Shown here: positions 1 through 36,202 of the stretch, one piece after another
Layout of the letters: every line of letters starts with the position of its first letter
Position numbering within the stretch: position 1 is the stretch's first letter
Source: Desulfobacterales bacterium
Lineage (GTDB): Bacteria > Desulfobacterota > Desulfobacteria > Desulfobacterales > Desulfobacteraceae
Direction of reading: 5' to 3'
Assembly (NCBI GenBank): GCA_022361535.1
Contig: JAKSAU010000110.1
Coordinates: 1-51,720, forward strand
Length of the DNA: 51,720 nt
The notes under the pieces: model-generated
The model's input: only the letters and a program-made list of their open reading frames with translations
What the model was told of the DNA's origin: nothing
Database searches by the model: none
Translations under genes and position numbers: made by a program

Positions 1-963
1 AATGTCTTGTTTTCGTTCGCGCAAAGGAGGGATGTGGATGGGAAATACATTAATCCGGTAATACAAATCTTCTCTGAACGTCTTTTCACTGACCATGTGC
101 CATAAATCTTTATTAGTAGCAGCAATTATTCTTACATCAGCAGTAATGGTTTTACTTCCGCCAAGACGTTCAAACTGTTGGGTTTCCAGGATTCTTAAAA
201 ATTTTGCCTGGACATCAATCTCCATATCTCCGATTTCATCTAAAAAAAGCGTGCCACCGGAGGCCATTTCAAATTTGCCTTTTTGCTGTTTGTGGGCACC
301 GGTAAACGCGCCTTTTTCATAGCCGAAGAGTTCAGCTTCCAATAAGGATGATGGGATCGCAGCACAGTTAACGGTTGAAAAAGGCCCTGAGGATCTTGGA
401 CTGTTCATATGCGTAGCACGGGCCAAAAGTTCTTTGCCGGTACCACTTTCTCCTGTGATGAGAACAGACGAATCCGTATGCGATACAGAACCGGCAAGCT
501 CAAGTACATCACAAATTTTTGGAGAATTACCCACAATGTTTTTAAAGGTAAACTTGTCTTCAATTTCCTGACGTAAGTGCCTGACTTCATGGGCTAGACG
601 GCTTACTTTTAATGCCTTTTTTATACTTTCACGAAGGGTTTCTTCTTTAAAAGGTTTGGTAACATAATCAAATGCACCTTCCCGAATGGCTTTGACTGCA
701 TTTTCAATTGAACCGTAGGCTGTGATTACAATCACAGGTATATCAGGATCTTTTTCTTTAACATGGGCCAATACATCCATACCGCTTTTTTTAGGCAGTT
801 TTAGATCTGTTACTACCAAATGGATCGGCTGATTTTCAAAGATATCAATGGCTTGTTCACCGTCTTGTGCTTCAAGGATGGCAATATCCAAATCAGAGAT
901 CTGCATACTGATTACCTGTCGCATTCTGTCTTCATCTTCAACTAATAGGATTTGAGGCGGCAT
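1..963 (-). CDS. NtrC-family sigma-54-dependent response regulator (partial, C-terminus off the left edge)
   Basis: The reading frame is open from its start to the left edge, giving 321 codons. An N-terminal receiver domain starts MPPQILLVEDEDRM; the phosphoacceptor aspartate lies in VVTDLKLPKKSG (about D53) and the conserved KPF follows. The AAA+ domain shows the Walker A motif GESGTGKE, the GAFTGA loop that contacts sigma-54, and Walker B FLDEIGD. The frame ends just after IPPLRER, so the C-terminal helix-turn-helix is not seen. The ATG at 963 sits 9 nt after AAGGAG; another ATG at 969 is only 3 nt away and so less likely. It overlaps the end of the upstream kinase gene by 26 nt, a typical translational coupling. 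With that kinase it should activate sigma-54 promoters; a candidate target is 5178-5194. The family assignment is very secure, the target is inferred. Confidence 0.96.
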   Translation of the reverse strand, partial: MPPQILLVEDEDRMRQVISMQISDLDIAILEAQDGEQAIDIFENQPIHLVVTDLKLPKKSGMDVLAHVKEKDPDIPVIVITAYGSIENAVKAIREGAFDYVTKPFKEETLRESIKKALKVSRLAHEVRHLRQEIEDKFTFKNIVGNSPKICDVLELAGSVSHTDSSVLITGESGTGKELLARATHMNSPRSSGPFSTVNCAAIPSSLLEAELFGYEKGAFTGAHKQQKGKFEMASGGTLFLDEIGDMEIDVQAKFLRILETQQFERLGGSKTITADVRIIAATNKDLWHMVSEKTFREDLYYRINVFPIHIPPLRERKQDI

Positions 964-23062: not shown

Positions 23063-24607
23063 TTAAAGCGGAGAGGGTCCTTGTGGCGGATGGGCTTTCA
23101 TGTATTCAAGCCGGTTCAAGCCGTTAATATAAGCCAGTGCAGAAGCTGTAATGATATCAGGATCAGCCCCCTTGCCCAATGCAACAATCCCGTCTTCTTT
23201 AAGCCTTACTGTAACCTCACCCTGGGCGTCTGTACCTTCAGTTAGGGCGGAGATGGTAAATCGCAGCAGTTCGGATTTGGTTCCGGTAAGTTTTGATATG
23301 ATGTTATAAACTGCATCAATGGGCCCTGAACCTTCTGTAGCTCCCTGGACAGGCCTGCCGTTAATGTTGAGCATAACAGACGCGGTCGGGTAAACTGTGT
23401 TGCCTGACAGAACATGGATATACTCAAGGCAGAAAACCTCGGAAGATCTGAGAACCCCTTCATTGATAAGTGCTTCAATATCTTCGTCAAGGATGCTCTT
23501 TTTCTTATCTGCCAGATTCTTGAATTTTTTAAATACAACATTCAGTTCATCTTCAGAAAGATCATAGCCCATTTCCTTAATGTGGGCGTTGAGAGCATGT
23601 CGGCCTGAGTGCTTGCCAAGTACAAGGCTGTTTTTGGAAATCCCAACCGTTTCTGGCTTCATGATTTCATACGTCATGGGGTTTTTAAGAACACCGTCCT
23701 GATGAATACCGGCTTCATGGGCAAAAGCATTTGCTCCCACAATGGCCCGGTTAGGCTGTACCAAAATACCTGTAATCATAGATACAAGCCTGGAAGTTGG
23801 GTAAATTCGGGTGGTATCAATTCCGGTGGTGTGGGGGAAGAAATTTGGCCTGGTATTCAGGGACATGACCACTTCTTCCATGGATGTGTTTCCTGCCCGT
23901 TCTCCGATGCCGTTGATGGTTACTTCGACCTGGCGGGCGCCGTTGCTGACGGCTGCAAGGGTGTTAGAGGTGGCAAGGCCAAGATCATTGTGACAATGGA
24001 CAGATAAGACTGCTTTATCGATGTTGGAAGTGTTTTCCATGACGTATTTGACCAACTCGCCAAATTCTTCCGGGATGGCATATCCAACGGTGTCTGGCAG
24101 GTTGATGGTGGTTGCACCAGCATCAATCACAGACTCAAACACGGTGCACAAAAAGTCTTTGTCGGATCTGGAGCCGTCTTCGGCAGAGAATTCTACGTTT
24201 TTGGTAAAAGATGCTGCCAGCTTTACGGACTCAACTGCTTGCTTTAATACATCTGCCGGCTCCATTTGAAGCTTGTATTTCATGTGCAGTTCAGAGGTCG
24301 CAATAAAGGTATGGATTCTTGGATTAACTGCATCCTTGACGGCATCCCATCCGCGCCTGATATCATCTTCATTAGCACGGCAAAGGGCTGCTACCTGGGT
24401 TTTTTTTAATGTTTCGGAAATGGCTTTTACAGCTTCGTAGTCTCCAACTGAGGCTGCCGGAAAACCTGCCTCAATTACGTCTACCCCCAGAGCCTCAAGC
24501 TGGGTAGCAATTCTCAGCTTCTCAGCCTGGTTCATACTGGCTCCGGGGGATTGTTCGCCGTCCCTCAATGTTGTATCGAATACGATAATTCGTCTGTCAT
24601 CATTCAT
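23063..24607 (-). CDS. leuA: 2-isopropylmalate synthase
   Basis: 514 residues, the length of the full bacterial enzyme with regulatory domain. The DRE-TIM barrel shows FDTTLRDGEQSPGASM near the N-terminus, VHCHNDLGLATSN, and the NGIGERAGNTSMEEVVM segment. The C-terminal LeuA dimer/allosteric domain is present (after about residue 390), so leucine feedback is expected. It condenses acetyl-CoA with 2-ketoisovalerate, the first committed step to leucine. It is last in the five-gene minus-strand operon, 19 nt after cimA; leuB and leuCD are not in the window. Confidence 0.97.
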   Translation of the reverse strand: MNDDRRIIVFDTTLRDGEQSPGASMNQAEKLRIATQLEALGVDVIEAGFPAASVGDYEAVKAISETLKKTQVAALCRANEDDIRRGWDAVKDAVNPRIHTFIATSELHMKYKLQMEPADVLKQAVESVKLAASFTKNVEFSAEDGSRSDKDFLCTVFESVIDAGATTINLPDTVGYAIPEEFGELVKYVMENTSNIDKAVLSVHCHNDLGLATSNTLAAVSNGARQVEVTINGIGERAGNTSMEEVVMSLNTRPNFFPHTTGIDTTRIYPTSRLVSMITGILVQPNRAIVGANAFAHEAGIHQDGVLKNPMTYEIMKPETVGISKNSLVLGKHSGRHALNAHIKEMGYDLSEDELNVVFKKFKNLADKKKSILDEDIEALINEGVLRSSEVFCLEYIHVLSGNTVYPTASVMLNINGRPVQGATEGSGPIDAVYNIISKLTGTKSELLRFTISALTEGTDAQGEVTVRLKEDGIVALGKGADPDIITASALAYINGLNRLEYMKAHPPQGPSPL

Positions 24608-24626: not shown

Positions 24627-26270
24627 TTAAACTGATTCTAAATTCTTAGATTTTTCATGATCGGTTTTCTGCGCTTTGTTCTTATCCAGTGACAACTTGT
24701 ACTGAAAACTGTCTGCCAGCGCCTGCCATGAGGCTTCAATAATATCTTCTGAGACCCCAATGGTGGAGAATATGTTATCCGTATCCCTGGATTCAATGAG
24801 AACCCTAACCTTGGCGTCAGTACCGTCAGAACCGTCAATCACACGGACTTTAAAGTCAACCAGGTACATGTCATTGACCTGCGGGTACACGGCAGATAAT
24901 GCTTTTCTTAGTGCATTATCAAGTGCAGATACAGGACCATCGCCCTCGGCAGAAGTGATTTCAGTCTTGTCACCCACCCGGATCTTGATCATGGCGTGGG
25001 AATAGCATGGGCGTTCTTTATCCTTTTCAACCACTACTCTGAACGACTCAAGGTCAAAGGTTGATTCATACTGCTCGGTGAGCTTTTCCATGATCAATTT
25101 CAGTGAGCCTTCAGCTGCGTCAAATTCAAACCCGTCATTTTCAAGCTCTTTAATATTGTTGACGATCAAGGCTTTCCTGGTTTCATCTTTGCCAAGGTCA
25201 ACACCAAGCTCTTCTGCTTTGTAGGTAATATTGCTTTTCCCGGATTGTTCTGAAACAAGCACCCGGCGTTCATTTCCCACCTGTTCAGGTGCCATATGTT
25301 CATAGGCTCTAGGATTTTTCATAATGGCAGAAACATGAACACCGCCTTTGTGAGCAAATGCAGATTTTCCAACAAAGGGTCTTGTGCTGACCGGCGGCAT
25401 GTTGGCAGTTTCGGATACAAACCTTGACAAGTTCTGCAGTTTTGCCAGGTTTTCATCACTAATGCAGTCCCGATTCATTTTTAATGCCAATATAGGGATA
25501 ATGGCTGTTAAGTCTGCATTGCCGCATCGTTCGCCATATCCGTTAATGGTACCCTGAACCATAGTCGCACCTGCGTGAACCGCATTGATGGTATTGGCCA
25601 CAGCCATGGCACAGTCGTTGTGTGTGTGAACTCCGAAGATCACATCTTCATGGTCTTTAAACCGTTCAATGGTTTCCCTGGTGATGGTATCAATGTCACA
25701 GGGAAGGCAGCCGCCGTTGGTGTCGCAAAGCACCAGACAGCGTGTTCCTCCTTTTAAAGCTGCGTCAAGAGTTTCCAAGGCGAACTCGGGGTTGGCCTTG
25801 TATCCGTCATAAAAATGTTCGGCATCATAAATGACTTCTCTGTCGTGGGCGCATAAATAAGCCACACTTTCAGTGATCATGGCCAAATTTTCTTTACGCG
25901 TGTTGGACATGATGTCTTGTACATGAAGGTCCCATGTTTTACCGAAAATAGTTACAGCAGGTGCACCTGAATCTATAAGAGCCTTAAGATTAGCATCCTC
26001 TTCACAGGTTTTGCCTGGCCGCCTTGTTGACCCAAAGGCTGATATTTTAGCCTGCTTGAACTCCACGTCTCTGACCAGATCGAAAAAGGCTTGTGCTCCG
26101 GGATTTGAACCGGGCCAGCCGCCTTCAATATAATGGATTCCAGATTCATCCAGGCGCATTGCCATTTTAAGTTTGTCTTCAGGGGAGAAAAAGATATTTT
26201 CCCCCTGCATCCCGTCCCTTAGGGTTGTGTCATACAAAATGGCTTTCTTTTTTACGCTTTCGCTATTCAT
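24627..26270 (-). CDS. cimA: (R)-citramalate synthase
   Basis: 547 residues. It is a second DRE-TIM aldolase with YDTTLRDGMQGENIFF near the start and YIEGGWPGSNPG, the segments that distinguish CimA from LeuA; VHTHNDCAMAVANT supplies the metal-binding HxH and YGERCGNADL follows. A C-terminal regulatory domain with GDGPVSALDNALRKAL is present. It condenses pyruvate with acetyl-CoA to citramalate, giving isoleucine without threonine deaminase. The start overlaps the ilvN stop by 4 nt. Presence of both cimA and leuA in one operon explains how a single regulatory leader can set all three branched-chain amino acids. Confidence 0.95.
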   Translation of the reverse strand: MNSESVKKKAILYDTTLRDGMQGENIFFSPEDKLKMAMRLDESGIHYIEGGWPGSNPGAQAFFDLVRDVEFKQAKISAFGSTRRPGKTCEEDANLKALIDSGAPAVTIFGKTWDLHVQDIMSNTRKENLAMITESVAYLCAHDREVIYDAEHFYDGYKANPEFALETLDAALKGGTRCLVLCDTNGGCLPCDIDTITRETIERFKDHEDVIFGVHTHNDCAMAVANTINAVHAGATMVQGTINGYGERCGNADLTAIIPILALKMNRDCISDENLAKLQNLSRFVSETANMPPVSTRPFVGKSAFAHKGGVHVSAIMKNPRAYEHMAPEQVGNERRVLVSEQSGKSNITYKAEELGVDLGKDETRKALIVNNIKELENDGFEFDAAEGSLKLIMEKLTEQYESTFDLESFRVVVEKDKERPCYSHAMIKIRVGDKTEITSAEGDGPVSALDNALRKALSAVYPQVNDMYLVDFKVRVIDGSDGTDAKVRVLIESRDTDNIFSTIGVSEDIIEASWQALADSFQYKLSLDKNKAQKTDHEKSKNLESV

Positions 26271-28482: not shown

Positions 28483-30150
28483 TTATTTGAATATTGCTCC
28501 ATTACCAGCGGATGAAACCATCCGTGCGTAACGGGCCATATAACCTGTTTTAATTTTTGGTTCCGGTTTTTCCCATGTAGAGAACCGGGTTTCTATTTCT
28601 TCTTTTGGAACTAAAAGTTCAATGGTCTTATTAGGAATGTCAATTTGGATTTGATCGTTTTCCTGGACGATTGCTATCAAGCCACCCTGTGTGGCTTCAG
28701 GGGATACATGGCCAATGCTTGCACCCTTGGTTCCGCCGGAAAATCGTCCATCAGTGATCAAAGCACACTTGTCATCTAATCCCATACCGGCAATGGCAGA
28801 AGTCGGCGTGAGCATTTCACGCATGCCAGGCCCGCCGGCCGGTCCCTCGTAACGGATAACAATTACATCACCCGGATTAATCTGTCTGTCCATAATGGCC
28901 TGGGTCGCATCTTCTTCTGAGTCGAAAACCCTGGCAGGTCCCTGGTGCGTCATCATCTCCGGCAATACTGCAGACTGCTTGACCACACAGCCTTCCGGTG
29001 CAATGTTCCCGAACAGTACCGCAAGTCCTCCTTCTTTATGGTAGGGATCTGCAACAGGCCGGACAACTTCCGGGTATTTAACAGATACAGTTTCAAGATT
29101 TTGGGCAATAGTGCTGCCCGTAGCCGTAATCAGTTCTGTATTTATCATGTTGTTGTCAGCAAGTTCTTTTAAAACCGCCTGAATGCCTCCGGCTGCGTCA
29201 AGATCTTCAATATGGTCTTTGCCGCCAGGGCTAAGAGAGCATAAGTGGGGTGTCTTTTTGCTGACCTCATTGATCAATTCAAGTGGGATATCTACACCTG
29301 CCTCAGCAGCAATGGCCTTAAGATGAAGCACGGTATTGGTAGAACAGCCCAGGGCCATGTCCACGGCCAAGGAATTCATAAATGCTTCTCTTGTCATTAC
29401 TTTTGAGGGAGTGATTTCTTTTTCCAGAAGTTCCATAACCTTAATACCTGCCTGTTTAGCAAGACGAAGTCTGCTGGACATTGGCGCTGGGATTGTGCCA
29501 TTGCCAGGCAATGCCATACCAATTGCTTCAGTGAGGCAATTCATGGAGTTTGCAGTGAACATACCGGCACAAGAGCCGCAGGTCGGACATGCTGCATTTT
29601 CAACTTCCAGGAGTTCTTTTTCAGATATTTTTCCTGTCTTAACAGCACCAACAGCCTCAAAAATGGAAATTAAGTCGATTTTTTTTGTTCTGTCTTGTGG
29701 ATGCCGGCCGGCCAGCATGGGGCCGCCACTGATAAAAATGGCAGGAATATTCAGTCTGGCTGCAGCCATCAGCATGCCGGGAACAATTTTATCACAGTTG
29801 GGGACCATGACGATTGCATCAAAAGGGTGGGCCGTTGCAGATACTTCTATACTGTCTGCAATCAGCTCTCTTGAAGCAAGAGAATAGTGCATGCCTTTGT
29901 GGTTCATAGCGATACCGTCACAAATCCCGATGGTGGAAAATTCCATGGGTGTGCCGCCGGCCATGGAGATCCCTGCTTTGACAGCGCTGACAATGGAATC
30001 AAGGTGCATATGTCCCGGAATCAGTTCATTGGCTGAATTGGCAATACCGATAAGTGGTTGGGAGATTTCCCGGTCCGTGTAACCCAAAGCTTTCATCAGG
30101 CCGCGGTGGGGTGCCCGTGCAACTCCTTTTGTAGCAATATGGCTTCTCAT
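28483..30150 (-). CDS. ilvD: Dihydroxy-acid dehydratase
   Basis: 555 residues. Iron-sulfur and active-site motifs are present: [31 protein letters not shown], and [19 protein letters not shown] near the C-terminus. The enzyme dehydrates dihydroxy acids to 2-keto acids in valine and isoleucine synthesis. It is the first structural gene after the attenuator; a GGAG lies 14 nt before its start, further than ideal. The missing pathway enzyme, ketol-acid reductoisomerase (ilvC), is not in this window. Confidence 0.97.
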
Positions 30151-30177: not shown

Positions 30178-30218
30178 AAAAGCCGTTATCAGCCCTCTTG
30201 GGGCTGATAACGGCTTTT
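30178..30218 (-). terminator. Attenuator terminator of the ilv-leu operon
   Basis: A perfect 18-bp stem (30178-30195 with 30201-30218) with a 5-nt loop. Read on the minus strand it ends in CGGCTTTTCTGG, a short T-run. It sits between the leader peptide and ilvD. Its 5' arm (minus 30214-30200) can instead pair with the end of the leader-peptide region (minus 30253-30239), 13 of 15 positions pairing including two G-U, to form an antiterminator. Confidence 0.85.
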
Positions 30219-30242
30219 TTAAGTTCTTTTTAGTTTAAGCCA

Positions 30243-30326
30243 CTAATAGCCCCTTCGCCCGGAGGTGAGAATAATCACCTCCACGATAATAAGGACTATT
30301 AGGCTGTTAATAATGTTTGTCTTCAT
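30243..30326 (-). CDS. Branched-chain amino acid leader peptide (ilv leader)
   Basis: A 27-codon frame: MKTNIINSLIVLIIV, then EVIILTSGRRGY. Seven Ile, three Leu and three Val make 13 of 27 residues, with runs LIVLIIV and VIIL, as in the E. coli ilv and leu leader peptides. The stop codon lies 24 nt before the terminator stem, and the last codons overlap the antiterminator arm. Low charged tRNA for any of the three amino acids would stall the ribosome and free that arm; normal translation to the stop would cover it and let the terminator form. The frame also contains a GGAGGTGA/TCACCTCC hairpin (30261-30282). Ribosome-binding site is weak (AGAG). Confidence 0.85.
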   Translation of the reverse strand: MKTNIINSLIVLIIVEVIILTSGRRGY

Positions 30327-30354
30327 AATTATTTACTCTAATTTAAAAAGATTT

Positions 30355-30381
30355 ATTATATATAAATTCTGAGAAAGTCAA
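30355..30381 (-). promoter_or_regulatory. Candidate promoter of the ilv leader and operon
   Basis: On the minus strand TTGACT (30381-30376) and TATAAT (30360-30355) are near-perfect boxes, but the spacer is only 15 nt. A hexamer TAATAA two bases later gives 17 nt. It lies 30 nt before the leader start codon, the right place for a short attenuator leader. Confidence 0.55.
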
Positions 30382-30633: not shown

Positions 30634-33138
30634 ATGGCCGAAAAACAACTTCATACGCAATTACTACTTTTAACGACGGGTATTATCCTTTCATTAACCG
30701 TGCTTGCTGTTTATGCCAATGCTATGGCATTGGTTCTTCCTGGTGCATTTTTTCTTTGCCTGGCATGGTCCACGTATTTACTATTTGGTAAGCAAAAGGA
30801 AACCTTTACTATAACAGAAAGAACACTTCCTCTTGTTTTTTTAGGATACGCCGTATGGTTTGGCTGTCTTACAGGAGGTATCTTCAGCCCTGGTATCTTA
30901 CTGCTTTTTTTGGTGCCTGTCATAGGCATACTGCAAGGCGTGACCTCATGGTTCGTTGTGTACAATGTGTTAGTTTTATCCTCTCTTTCTTTCTTTTATT
31001 TTGGACCAGCCTGGGGACCTGGCGCATTAAATCTTAACGAGCACCGTTTTGCTTACCTATGCATAATATCTTTAGCATTCTGCTGTGGAACTTGGATTGT
31101 ATTAGCAAATGGTAGAAGAGTTCGCAGAGACATTGAAACTTCAAAAGCCTCTTTAGCGAAAGTTTCTGAAGAGGCAAAAACCACACTTGAGGTCAAAGAC
31201 AGGTTTCTTGCCAATATGAGCCATGAAATACGCAATCCCATGAACGGTATTATTGGAATGATGCACCTTTTACTAGATTCTGACCTTGATGAGGAACAGC
31301 GTCGCCATTCCAATATTATATACAGCAGCGCTAGAGCTTTGCTCTCCATTGTAAATGATATCCTTGATTTATCTAAGATTGAAGCCGGAAAACTTGAGTT
31401 GGATATCCGACCGTTTGATTTGCAGATCGCAATTGAAGACATTGTTTCACTGCCAGAATTACAAGCCAGACAAAAAGGTCTTGATTTCAGTTATTCCATT
31501 GATGCCGATGTGCCAAGATTGCTCAAAGGGGATATTGGTCGGATTCGTCAGGTCATTTTAAACCTTACCGGCAATGGCATCAAATTTACAGAAGATGGAT
31601 CTGTGAGTTTGAACATTACACTAAAAGAGGATACCCCTGACCATGCTTTGATCCACTTTAGTGTGGATGATACAGGCATTGGAATCAAAGAAGAGGCTTT
31701 GGAGAATCTTTTTTCCGCATTCGTCCAGGCTGACGCGTCTATTACAAAAAAATACGGGGGCACCGGACTTGGTTTGTCCATATCTAAACTAATGATTGAA
31801 AAAATGGGCGGCCAAATTAATGCCGAAAGCATTGAAATGATCGGCTCTACCTTCTGGTTTGAACTACCGCTTGAAAAACAGGACCCGGGAGAAGCTGCTA
31901 TTGATCTTACTGCAATCCCGTTGAGCGAAATAAGAGCAATTGTGCTGTCTGATGCAGATACACCAGGCAAACAACTGATCAAAGCGCTTGAAATTAGTCG
32001 GGTGAAATATGAAGTATATGAGAATGATGCGGTTTTCCAGATTCTTGATCAGGCGTATACAAATCAACAACCTTTCCATGTAATAGTGATGGAGGTAAAT
32101 GAATCCGATCAGTATGCAAGGGCTTTGGGAAAATCATTTAAAGACCATAACGAGCATTGTTCAATAAAACGCATACTTGTTACCGGGGTTGGACAAAAAG
32201 GGGATGCCCGTGACTTCGAAGATTTAGGATTTAGCGCTTACTTAAGTTTTCCTTTGGAAGAAACAACTCTCAAGGACTGTATAAGTGCAGTTTTAGCTTT
32301 TAGTAACAGAGAATGCATAAATCATCCTATCATTACGCGGTTTTCCCTTGCTGAAAGCAAAAAACAAAGTTCAAAAATACTCGTAGTTGATGATATTGAA
32401 ACAAATCGGATTACTGCCAAAGCACTTATCAATAAACAAGGCTATCAAACAGATGAGGCCTCTGATGGACAGGATGCATTAGAAAAAGTAAAATCCAATA
32501 ATTACGATCTGGTTTTAATGGATTGCCAAATGCCGGTAATGGATGGATACGAAGCCTGCCGGCAAATAAGAGCCTGGGAGGAAGGAAATAGTAGACAAGC
32601 TATACCGATTATAGCAATGACAGGCAATGCTTTTGAAAAAGACCGAGAGAATTGCTTTAAAGCCGGTATGGATGATTTTATTGCCAAACCTGTTGAACCG
32701 GATACGCTTGCAAGGATCATTTATCTTCATATAAATGAAGATGACCCATCCCAACAGGATATGTCCATTGATTTAGAAGCATCTGAGCCAGAAACGGTTG
32801 AAACCGAAGAGGTCCAGGTCTTTGACAAAGAGACACTTATACAGAGGTTTGGAAATGACAGTGAACTTGTCCAGGTTGTATTAGAGTCTTTCTTTCAAGA
32901 GATCGGAGATCTTATTGAGAATCTGGATGATGCTATACAAACAGATAATTATGAAAACGTGAGAACATGTGCTCATGCGTTAAAAGGCTCTGCTGCAAAT
33001 GTAAATGCGGAACAGGTCAGGCAGACAGCTTTTCAACTTGAACAGGATTCAGGTAACGCCGATCTAAGCAATGCAGACGAGCTCTTTTCACGTATTAAAA
33101 AACAACTGAAATTATTTTCCGAGGAAGCCGGGGTATGA
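30634..33138 (+). CDS. Hybrid sensor histidine kinase (BarA-like: HisKA-HATPase-REC-REC-HPt)
   Basis: 834 residues. About five N-terminal membrane helices (to about residue 158) form an unassigned membrane sensor with almost no periplasmic loop. A short coiled segment leads to HisKA with FLANMSHEIRNPMNGIIGMM (H197), then a HATPase domain with the N-box near 308-318, DDTGIGI and GGTGLGLSI. Residues 430-555 look like a receiver without the usual acidic and Asp residues, so it is probably inactive. A second, intact receiver follows (KILVVDDIETNR; LVLMDCQMPVMDGYEA, D630). The C-terminal HPt domain has CAHALKGSAANV (H781). Phosphate should flow H197 to D630 to H781 and then to a partner, most likely the REC-TPR protein whose gene overlaps by 4 nt. 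Confidence 0.95.
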   Translation: MAEKQLHTQLLLLTTGIILSLTVLAVYANAMALVLPGAFFLCLAWSTYLLFGKQKETFTITERTLPLVFLGYAVWFGCLTGGIFSPGILLLFLVPVIGILQGVTSWFVVYNVLVLSSLSFFYFGPAWGPGALNLNEHRFAYLCIISLAFCCGTWIVLANGRRVRRDIETSKASLAKVSEEAKTTLEVKDRFLANMSHEIRNPMNGIIGMMHLLLDSDLDEEQRRHSNIIYSSARALLSIVNDILDLSKIEAGKLELDIRPFDLQIAIEDIVSLPELQARQKGLDFSYSIDADVPRLLKGDIGRIRQVILNLTGNGIKFTEDGSVSLNITLKEDTPDHALIHFSVDDTGIGIKEEALENLFSAFVQADASITKKYGGTGLGLSISKLMIEKMGGQINAESIEMIGSTFWFELPLEKQDPGEAAIDLTAIPLSEIRAIVLSDADTPGKQLIKALEISRVKYEVYENDAVFQILDQAYTNQQPFHVIVMEVNESDQYARALGKSFKDHNEHCSIKRILVTGVGQKGDARDFEDLGFSAYLSFPLEETTLKDCISAVLAFSNRECINHPIITRFSLAESKKQSSKILVVDDIETNRITAKALINKQGYQTDEASDGQDALEKVKSNNYDLVLMDCQMPVMDGYEACRQIRAWEEGNSRQAIPIIAMTGNAFEKDRENCFKAGMDDFIAKPVEPDTLARIIYLHINEDDPSQQDMSIDLEASEPETVETEEVQVFDKETLIQRFGNDSELVQVVLESFFQEIGDLIENLDDAIQTDNYENVRTCAHALKGSAANVNAEQVRQTAFQLEQDSGNADLSNADELFSRIKKQLKLFSEEAGV

Positions 33139-35056: not shown

Positions 35057-36202
35057 CTAATTCTGTCTTCTAAGCCAGGCTAACCCTTTTCCGGATTTTT
35101 CGTTGAGTTCTTCAGATGTCTGGTCGGCGGGCGGTTCAACAGGTTCTTTGGGTGTCTCTTTTTTAGGACGCTCTTTAGCCGGAGCGACCTTTTTATTGCC
35201 CCATTTGTAATGGCCGAATTTACAATATCCTTGTACATTGTTGAATCGGGCATCGATATTTTTCTGGATTGGAATAACATTGCCTTCAATATTGGGAATC
35301 AAGTATTCAGCCAATGGTATGGAACCTCCTCCGGACAGGACAATTGTGTCAATATCCCAGTCGTTCTCCCACAATCGGGTCAAATCAGAGGCAATTGCAG
35401 AGGATGCGTGGGTATAAACCCGTTTTTTAAGGTTGGTAATGTTGTATTCTTTTCCTTTAATTTTTATCATTCCGGATTCAACAAATTTGAAGATCCGGTA
35501 CAATTCGATATTGATCCCGCTTTCCTGCCTTAGTTTGTTGGCAATGACGGAGAAGCATTTGGAAATTCCTGTATCCATGGTGGTGGATCCGCGTTCAATA
35601 TACTGTAAGTGATCAAATATTGAAAAGTCAGTGGTTTTAAACCCGATATCAACAACACCTATTTTTGATCCTGCCAAACCACGGTCGGTAATTTTACCTT
35701 TTTCGTCAAAGATTAAGTTGAAAATTGATCCAATGGGCTGAGGAATAACATGAACCTTATCAATCTGGATTCTGCGATGTTCATCCGGTTCGTCCTGGTT
35801 GTGGTAAGTTATCTCATGTGTTCCGCGGATAATTTCTTTAAGTCTTTTAGTATCTCGCTTGAGATACCCAACTGGCAAGCCGGTAACTACGTTCATGGGA
35901 CCGGTAGTATTGGAACAAATTCCTGCGGCAGCAATAGCAAGGATTTTAATAAATTCTTCAACCAGTTTATCCTGGTCCAAGGTGTACTCTGTGATATTGG
36001 ACTGCAGTTCTGCATAGGAGCCGAGAAAATAGGTCTTGTCATTGATGGTAATATGAAGATTTGAAGTCGCAGAAGCGTCCCCCATTGAAGAACGGAACTG
36101 TATGTCTGTGGCGTCTCCAATCAGGGACTTGAATATAACGGAATTTTTTCCGTTGTATGCCTTGGTAAAACCGAAACCAACATCAATTCCAACTATTTCC
36201 AT
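35057..36202 (-). CDS. ParM/Alp-like actin-family protein
   Basis: 381 residues with a strong ribosome-binding site (AGGAGGTCAGGAC). Actin-superfamily nucleotide motifs are clear: phosphate-1 GIDVGFGFTKA near the start, phosphate-2 GVVDIGFKTTDFS, and the adenosine loop TIVLSGGGSIPLAEYL. The overall form is that of ParM/StbA and related bacterial actin-like proteins rather than MreB, FtsA or MamK. The C-terminus ends in a Lys/Pro/Glu-rich tail (about 335-380) that is likely disordered. Actin-like proteins of this kind often segregate plasmids, but no ParR-like partner or centromere repeats are adjacent. It precedes larB in the same operon, an unexpected pairing. Confidence 0.9.
   Translation of the reverse strand: MEIVGIDVGFGFTKAYNGKNSVIFKSLIGDATDIQFRSSMGDASATSNLHITINDKTYFLGSYAELQSNITEYTLDQDKLVEEFIKILAIAAAGICSNTTGPMNVVTGLPVGYLKRDTKRLKEIIRGTHEITYHNQDEPDEHRRIQIDKVHVIPQPIGSIFNLIFDEKGKITDRGLAGSKIGVVDIGFKTTDFSIFDHLQYIERGSTTMDTGISKCFSVIANKLRQESGINIELYRIFKFVESGMIKIKGKEYNITNLKKRVYTHASSAIASDLTRLWENDWDIDTIVLSGGGSIPLAEYLIPNIEGNVIPIQKNIDARFNNVQGYCKFGHYKWGNKKVAPAKERPKKETPKEPVEPPADQTSEELNEKSGKGLAWLRRQN

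What the first reader, a model, noticed from the sequence alone, without database searches (positions are those of the whole stretch)
30178..30381. A complete ribosome-mediated attenuator controls ilvD-ilvB-ilvN-cimA-leuA
Upstream of ilvD there is a 27-codon leader peptide with 13 Ile/Leu/Val residues (runs LIVLIIV and VIIL), a perfect 18-bp terminator, and an alternative pairing: minus 30253-30239 can pair with terminator arm 30214-30200 at 13 of 15 positions, counting two G-U pairs. Ribosome stalling on the Ile/Val/Leu codons would free that arm and favour antitermination; reaching the stop codon would cover it. Attenuation of this kind is well known in enterobacteria (established), but a leader peptide covering a cimA-containing operon in a presumed deltaproteobacterium seems little described. 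One leader with all three residues fits an operon serving all three amino acids.
Basis: partly seen in the sequence, partly recalled or inferred. Interest (0 to 1): 0.75.

Follow-up and report, generated by a model that had tools for sequence, protein, structure and literature searches.

The report
Amino-acid-sensing RNA switch before ilvD operon
A short decoy gene rich in isoleucine, leucine and valine codons sits before genes that make these amino acids and very likely lets translation decide whether transcription continues; the mechanism is a classic one, found here to be widely conserved among the relatives of this sulfate-reducer-like bacterium.

Summary
The finding is real and its reading holds. 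Minus strand 30381-30178 has a promoter-like pair, a 27-codon leader ORF with 13 Ile/Leu/Val, and a perfect 18-bp terminator 28 nt before ilvD. A fixed detector finds the device upstream of ilvD in 129 of 138 sequences from the order, 133 with four added by eye, against 0 of 414 shuffles and 0 of 1500 control windows. In two relatives where cimA precedes ilvD, it stands before cimA. Across 128 leaders the Ile/Leu/Val run ends a median 18 nt short of strand 2, about the reach of a stalled ribosome. It was not found upstream of ilvD in 73 sequences from three other groups. Verdict: ribosome-mediated attenuation, a new member of a known kind. My searches listed no paper on it in this order, but two older surveys could not be read. 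Covariation for 2:3 is weak. Regulation itself is inferred, not measured.

The parts
30355..30381 (-). promoter-like pair TTGACT (30381-30376), 15 nt, TATAAT (30360-30355)
   Evidence: coordinates; in 127 sequences, 82 score 9.5 or more against 23 of their single-base shuffles. The consensus scan allows 16-18 nt only and does not list it
30243..30326 (-). leader peptide ORF, 27 codons and stop, 13 Ile/Leu/Val
   Evidence: similar leaders in relatives
30291..30305 (-). strand 1 of the protector helix 1:2, inside the Ile/Leu/Val run
   Evidence: 1:2 with inner hairpin -33.9 kcal/mol, z -5.0, 0 of 200 shuffles as good
30261..30282 (-). inner hairpin GGAGGUGA / UCACCUCC, perhaps a pause hairpin, in the leader ORF
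   Evidence: paired in about 90% of cells, a few compensatory changes in relatives
30237..30255 (-). strand 2: pairs with strand 1 (protector, 30255-30238) or strand 3 (antiterminator, 30253-30237); contains the leader stop codon 30245-30243
30201..30218 (-). strand 3: 5' arm of the terminator, partner of strand 2 in the antiterminator
30178..30195 (-). strand 4: 3' arm of the terminator ending in UUUU
28483..30150 (-). ilvD, first structural gene
   Evidence: NF002068 814.5 bits, TIGR00110 779.3 bits
26773..28464 (-). ilvB, acetolactate synthase large subunit
   Evidence: TIGR00118 809.1 bits
26267..26758 (-). ilvN, acetolactate synthase small subunit; overlaps cimA by 4 nt
24627..26270 (-). 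cimA, citramalate synthase
   Evidence: TIGR00977 709.5 bits (cut-off 450)
23063..24607 (-). leuA, 2-isopropylmalate synthase
   Evidence: TIGR00973 705.7 bits (cut-off 598.7)

Best explanation
A ribosome-mediated transcription attenuator. RNA polymerase starts near 30345 (inferred from the promoter-like pair) and makes the leader; a ribosome follows. If charged Ile-, Leu- or Val-tRNA is short, the ribosome stalls in the run of codons 9-20, covers strand 1, and leaves strand 2 free to pair with strand 3, so the terminator cannot form and ilvD-ilvB-ilvN-cimA-leuA is transcribed. If all three are plentiful, the ribosome reaches the UAG inside strand 2 and covers it; strands 3 and 4 then form the terminator. 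Without translation, 1:2 and 3:4 form and transcription also stops. Shown: the parts, their alternative pairing, their conservation and their position at the front of the gene row. Inferred: stalling, readthrough and sensing of all three amino acids.
For: Detector: 129 of 138 ilvD upstreams positive, 0 of 414 dinucleotide shuffles, 0 of 1500 other same-strand windows of the same loci (the 6.7 threshold was set after seeing the real scores). Four of the nine negatives carry the device by eye (L088, L104, L121, L151). All 128 leaders analysed contain Ile, Leu and Val; 52% I/L/V against 23% in ilvD. Before strand 4 is made, the 5' terminator arm pairs at 8 or more nt with the stretch upstream of it in 124 of 128 folds; the stop codon overlaps strand 2 in 108 of 128. 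Strand 2 is found at the same place (within 3 nt) in 128 of 128 when the whole leader is searched. I/L/V content is 80-96% at most codons 18-48 nt before strand 2 and falls to 28% at 15 nt and 8% at 9 nt, as expected if a stalled ribosome must not reach strand 2. Where cimA precedes ilvD the device stands before cimA (L007, L219). Helices 1:2, inner hairpin and 3:4 pair in 85.8% of cells against 57% or less when slid.
Against: No expression data. Of 128 antiterminator duplexes 29 are matched by more than 5 of 100 spacer shuffles. Within the family the antiterminator helix is mostly invariant, so its covariation is weak: 2 of its 15 pairs change on both sides, and a slid control of that structure has 6 such pairs against 5 observed. 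The outer 1:2 helix is paired in only 73% of cells, and a slid control of the 1:2 and 3:4 structure reaches 12 doubly changed pairs against 13. RNAalifold on the family keeps the terminator, part of the inner hairpin and part of 2:3, but not 1:2. The window's U-tract is short (UUUUCUGG): 121 of 128 leaders have more U in those 8 nt.
Confidence: 0.94

Rival explanations
1. The attenuator works as described but senses mainly one amino acid (leucine through CUA codons, or isoleucine), the other residues being incidental.
For: CTA is 22% of Leu codons in leaders against 2% in ilvD, in the rest of the order 13% against 3%; Ile is at least as frequent as Leu and as Val in 104 of 128 leaders.
Against: All 128 leaders hold all three residues, and each of I, L and V is common within the 18-50 nt before strand 2 in the 99 best-supported leaders. 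CTA may also be favoured by strand 1 pairing.
Confidence: 0.3
2. The terminator is a plain terminator or fixed damper and the leader ORF is not used as a sensor.
For: Not excluded by any expression data; the terminator alone would be stable (-30.8 kcal/mol).
Against: The gene upstream (30634-33138) is divergent, and one search lists no minus-strand ORF of 100 aa or more between it and ilvD, so the terminator has no other evident client. Leader composition, antiterminator and footprint-sized spacing are conserved together, which a plain terminator does not need.
Confidence: 0.04
3. A different RNA sensor such as a T-box or another Rfam element controls the operon.
For: T-boxes are reported in Geobacter, another deltaproteobacterium (PMC3766115, passages).
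Against: No Rfam family reaches its gathering score anywhere in the window.
Confidence: 0.01
4. The device shares descent with, or was acquired from, the enterobacterial ilvGMEDA attenuator rather than arising on its own.
For: The window leader scores 32.7 bits, E 2e-8, against RF02744, a family named rev_39, 5' UTR of ilvG, in Pectobacterium (PMC4710047, passages). E. coli ilvL has GTGGTGGTGATTATTATCCCACC where the window has GTGGAGGTGATTATTCTCACCTCC.
Against: The score is far below the gathering score of 88. In 96 genomes of the order none passes the cut-off; of five weak hits one is a leader of the family (G019, 19.4 bits), and the other four match model positions 193-228 only (run with stricter filters that lose weak matches). 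GTGG.GGTGATT occurs in 39 of 53 family leaders and 0 of 75 other leaders. Codon constraint (Val-x-Val-Ile-Ile) makes convergence easy.
Confidence: 0.08

Closest known systems
E. coli ilvGMEDA attenuator (ilvL leader); Rfam RF02744 Rev39_5p_UTR covers the ilvG 5' UTR of soft rot enterobacteria and rings in E. coli
   Same: Leader peptide rich in Ile/Leu/Val, terminator before the first gene, and a similar hairpin coding Val-x-Val-Ile-Ile.
   Different: Different operon (ilvD first, with cimA and leuA), different terminator sequence, below the RF02744 gathering score.
Corynebacterium ilvBNC leader-peptide attenuator
   Same: Leader peptide attenuator of a branched-chain operon, three-hairpin model (PMC11857589, listing and start of abstract only).
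   Different: Other phylum; no comparison of sequence was made here.
T-box regulators of Geobacter (deltaproteobacteria)
   Same: Respond to amino acid shortage (PMC3766115, passages).
   Different: Recognise uncharged tRNA without a leader peptide; no T-box found in the window.

Membership tests
Ribosome-mediated (leader-peptide) transcription attenuator of branched-chain amino acid operons | short translated ORF with regulatory codons for the operon's products | tested here: met
   27 codons, 13 I/L/V; 128 of 128 analysed leaders contain all three. Translation itself not tested.
Ribosome-mediated (leader-peptide) transcription attenuator of branched-chain amino acid operons | intrinsic terminator between leader ORF and first structural gene | tested here: met
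   18-bp stem, UUUU tract, 28 nt before ilvD
Ribosome-mediated (leader-peptide) transcription attenuator of branched-chain amino acid operons | antiterminator that excludes the terminator | tested here: met
   2:3 -20.2 kcal/mol, 2 of 200 shuffles as good; found in relatives; little covariation
Ribosome-mediated (leader-peptide) transcription attenuator of branched-chain amino acid operons | protector helix 1:2 that excludes the antiterminator | tested here: met
   met in the window: -33.9 kcal/mol with inner hairpin. Across the family weaker: outer helix paired in 73% of cells, absent from the RNAalifold consensus
Ribosome-mediated (leader-peptide) transcription attenuator of branched-chain amino acid operons | readthrough rises when the cognate charged tRNA falls | not testable with these tools
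   needs expression data
Rfam RF02744 (Rev39_5p_UTR, ilvG leader) | score at or above the gathering score of 88 bits | tested here: not met
   32.7 bits; 0 of 96 order genomes over the cut-off
T-box riboswitch (RF00230) | match to the Rfam T-box model | tested here: not met
   no gathering-score match to any family in the window

The most novel reading that the evidence does not exclude
The Desulfobacula-group leader and the enterobacterial ilvL leader share one pause hairpin (GUGGNGGUGAUUAUUNUCNCCNCC) by descent or transfer, so that this attenuator is an old device that moved between phyla, and it is carried along at the front of the gene row through rearrangement.
Probability: 0.1. Interest if true: 0.5.

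Novelty: new member of a known kind. Interest (0 to 1): 0.4.

Why it matters
It gives a group of anaerobes a concrete, testable rule for when they make branched-chain amino acids, in an operon that, by its cimA, should make isoleucine from citramalate (inference from the enzyme's known role). A survey of the four Rfam attenuator families then available (His, Leu, Thr, Trp) held that these may have originated in gammaproteobacteria with very few transfers (PMC3766115, passages); leader peptides are also reported in Actinobacteria and Firmicutes (PMC2965389, passages), and an order-wide case in Desulfobacterota adds another group. The set of 128 leaders also measures a design rule: regulatory codons stop a median 18 nt before the antiterminator strand.

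Tried and rejected
T-box or other catalogued RNA: none at gathering score. The conserved GGAGGUGAU, a Shine-Dalgarno-like stretch inside the leader (likeness recalled), was considered as an internal ribosome hook; compensatory changes on the two sides of the hairpin (GGAGGC/GCCUCC in L110, GGAGGUA/UACCUCC in L143) favour an RNA hairpin instead. One search selected rows on GTGGAGGT[GC], carried by 52 of 58 family sequences, so the complete invariance it prints for those positions is by construction. Descent from the enterobacterial attenuator was tested with RF02744 and not supported. Whether the device exists before other genes in the three negative groups was not tested.

Full report
What is there. 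On the minus strand, upstream of ilvD, lie a TTGACT-15-TATAAT pair (30381-30355), a 27-codon ORF (30326-30243) reading MKTNIINSLIVLIIVEVIILTSGRRGY, and an 18-bp perfect stem-loop (30218-30178) ending in UUUU, 28 nt before the ilvD ATG. The RNA folds far better than chance (-67.8 kcal/mol, z -8.2, 0 of 200 shuffles as good).

Three states. With strand 1 left out and strand 4 not yet made, strand 2 pairs with strand 3: 15 bp, -20.2 kcal/mol, 2 of 200 shuffles as good. With strand 4 present the terminator wins (-37.0 for the 84-nt piece, 0 of 200). Without strands 3 and 4, the protector forms (-33.9, 0 of 200). The UAG of the leader lies inside strand 2. This is the classic set 1:2, 2:3, 3:4.

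Whose genome. IlvD places the window near Desulfobacula (L001, 81% identity, named) and unnamed members of the same family group at up to 88%. No whole genome is held for the window.

Conservation. I searched 86 genomes of the family of that Desulfobacula MAG and 291 drawn from its order; 67 and 221 have a match at E 1e-180 or better. I read the ilvD upstream of 137 of these genomes plus the window (loci, regions). Better IlvD matches and those with enough upstream sequence were preferred, so distant members are under-sampled. A fixed detector asks for an I/L/V-rich short ORF followed by a terminator. It is positive in 129 of 138, in 0 of 414 shuffles and 0 of 1500 other windows from the same loci at the score of the weakest real case; without that score it fires in 3 and 6 of these. 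The threshold was set after seeing the real scores. Of the nine negatives, L088, L104, L121 and L151 carry leader and terminator by eye (L121 with an extra inverted repeat in between); L118 and L203 have cimA directly before ilvD; L152-L154 hold a divergent IlvD (about 58% identity) with none of the other four genes in reach. Among the 80 named loci, 8 are positive at ilvD: L001, L002, L003, L005, L006, L009, L010 and L076.

The exceptions help. In L007, and in the genome of L203 (read as L219), cimA precedes ilvD, and a leader (MQPQAITSTVGIIAVVVGIIISLLPAGGLVMA; MEIIVVIVGIIISLLPAGGLVMA) with a terminator stands before cimA. The device stays at the front of the gene row when the order changes. 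The contig of L118 begins inside cimA and could not be checked.

Operon. In the 86 longer regions L132-L217, 75 have ilvD, ilvB, ilvN, cimA and leuA in that order; the other 11 lack one or more in the stretch held. From ilvN start to cimA start the median is 531 nt in 19 family members and 1714 nt in 60 others, leaving those about 1.2 kb, room for a gene that I did not identify; in the window ilvN and cimA overlap by 4 nt.

Antiterminator across the order. For 128 leaders (L108 dropped as the same genome as L001) the median 2:3 duplex is -14.1 kcal/mol, median z -2.8 against spacer shuffles; 99 of 128 are matched by at most 5 of 100 shuffles and 29 are not. In 124 of 128 the 5' arm pairs at 8 or more nt with the stretch upstream of it before strand 4 exists; in 108 the stop codon overlaps strand 2. 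Searching the whole leader without any mask gives the same strand 2 within 3 nt in 128 of 128.

A footprint rule. Counted from the start of strand 2 (as RNAduplex gives it, with one dangling base), codons 18-48 nt upstream are I/L/V in 80-96% of leaders, except at 30 nt (73%) and 27 nt (41%), where the family has mostly Glu at one place and others often Gly; at 15 and 12 nt this falls to 28% and 27%, at 9 nt to 8%, and at 3 nt to 0% (the 99 best-supported leaders look alike). The last codon of the run starts a median 18 nt before strand 2, quartiles 15 and 19; 89 of 128 lie within 13-20 nt (whose printed label says 15..19). The reach of a ribosome beyond its A site is of that size (recalled). 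So the codons stop where a stalled ribosome would begin to cover strand 2. I regard this as the best single piece of evidence that the ORF is read as a sensor.

Covariation (57 family sequences, A1). For 1:2, inner hairpin and 3:4, 85.8% of cells pair, against 57% or less when partners are slid; 13 pairs change on both sides (shuffled mean 7.8, 0 of 500 as high), though one slid control reaches 12. The outer 1:2 helix is the weakest, 73%. For inner hairpin and 2:3, 89.5% of cells pair against 52% or less when slid, but 2:3 gives little covariation: 2 of 15 pairs, and a slid control has 6 doubly changed pairs against 5 for the structure. RNAalifold on the same rows keeps the terminator, part of the inner hairpin and part of 2:3, not 1:2. 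The strand 3 core CCGTTA[CT]C occurs in 125 of 128 sequences, which fits double constraint on that strand.

RNA kept, frame not. In 75 leaders outside the family, 38 end in tandem UGA UAA, while 13 end in a pattern like Leu-Ile-Met-Ala because they read the same kind of RNA in another frame and stop a few codons later (the pattern also takes one Ile-Thr-Gly end, L160). Pairing rather than peptide seems conserved there.

Codons. Leaders are 52% I/L/V against 23% in ilvD; CTA is 22% of leader Leu codons against 2% in ilvD and CTG 6% against 40%, the same trend inside and outside the family. Rare codons could sharpen the response, but pairing of strand 1 with the stop region also favours CTA.

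Limits of the range. Upstream of ilvD the detector finds nothing in 30 sequences from the order of a Desulfacinum MAG (35 of 39 genomes matched), 30 from that of a Desulfovibrio MAG (40 of 41) and 13 from that of a Desulfatiglandales MAG (13 of 41). They may control other genes this way; I did not look.

Known kinds. Rfam has no gathering-score match in the window. Below threshold the leader hits RF02744 at 32.7 bits, which PMC4710047 lists as rev_39, 5' UTR of ilvG (passages). E. coli K-12 ilvL (L218) holds a similar hairpin. A search of 96 order genomes with RF02744, run with stricter filters, gave no match over the cut-off and one weak leader match, and GTGG.GGTGATT is found in 39 of 53 family leaders but 0 of 75 others, so I take the likeness as probably convergent.

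Literature. PMC3766115 (passages) analysed Desulfovibrionales among deltaproteobacteria and suggests a gammaproteobacterial origin of the attenuators it covered. PMC2965389 contains no word beginning Desulf or ilv in its main text. Searches combining leader peptide or attenuation with Deltaproteobacteria, Desulfobacter, Desulfobacula, Desulfobacterales or cimA listed no paper on this device, judged by titles and starts of abstracts (of one search's 296 papers only 15 were listed). Vitreschak 2004 and Lopatovskaya 2010 were seen only as references and may list cases.

Verdict. An ordinary mechanism, soundly present, of wide breadth in its order. Confidence 0.94 that it is a ribosome-mediated attenuator; lower that it senses all three amino acids equally.

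Noticed in passing
L051, L058, L064 (about 3.1-3.7 kb before ilvD): I/L/V-rich leader ORFs with strong terminators stand before an acetolactate-synthase-like ORF (by its start, recalled) in Oligosphaera, a Verrucomicrobia MAG and a Lentisphaerae MAG, so such leaders seem to occur outside Proteobacteria.
   Followed up: partly
L076, 164 nt before ilvD; L055, about 3.45 kb before ilvD; L004, about 5.9 kb before ilvD: Further leader-plus-terminator candidates in an unplaced bacterium, a Christensenella MAG and a Desulfatiglandales MAG.
   Followed up: no
window 30282-30275, minus: GGAGGUGAU inside the leader ORF looks like a Shine-Dalgarno sequence; GTGGAGGT[GC] is kept in 52 of 58 family sequences, within an inner hairpin.
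   Followed up: partly
L121, between leader and terminator: A long inverted repeat lies between leader ORF and terminator without removing either (sequence).
   Followed up: no
window 30201-30218 and relatives: Terminator arm core CCGTTA[CT]C is near invariant (125 of 128) across the order, perhaps more than pairing alone would ask for.
   Followed up: no
window 35057-36202, minus: The ORF looks like a plasmid-type actin (ParM-like) protein by its start MEIVGIDVGFGFTKAYNG; recalled resemblance, no search made (sequence).
   Followed up: no
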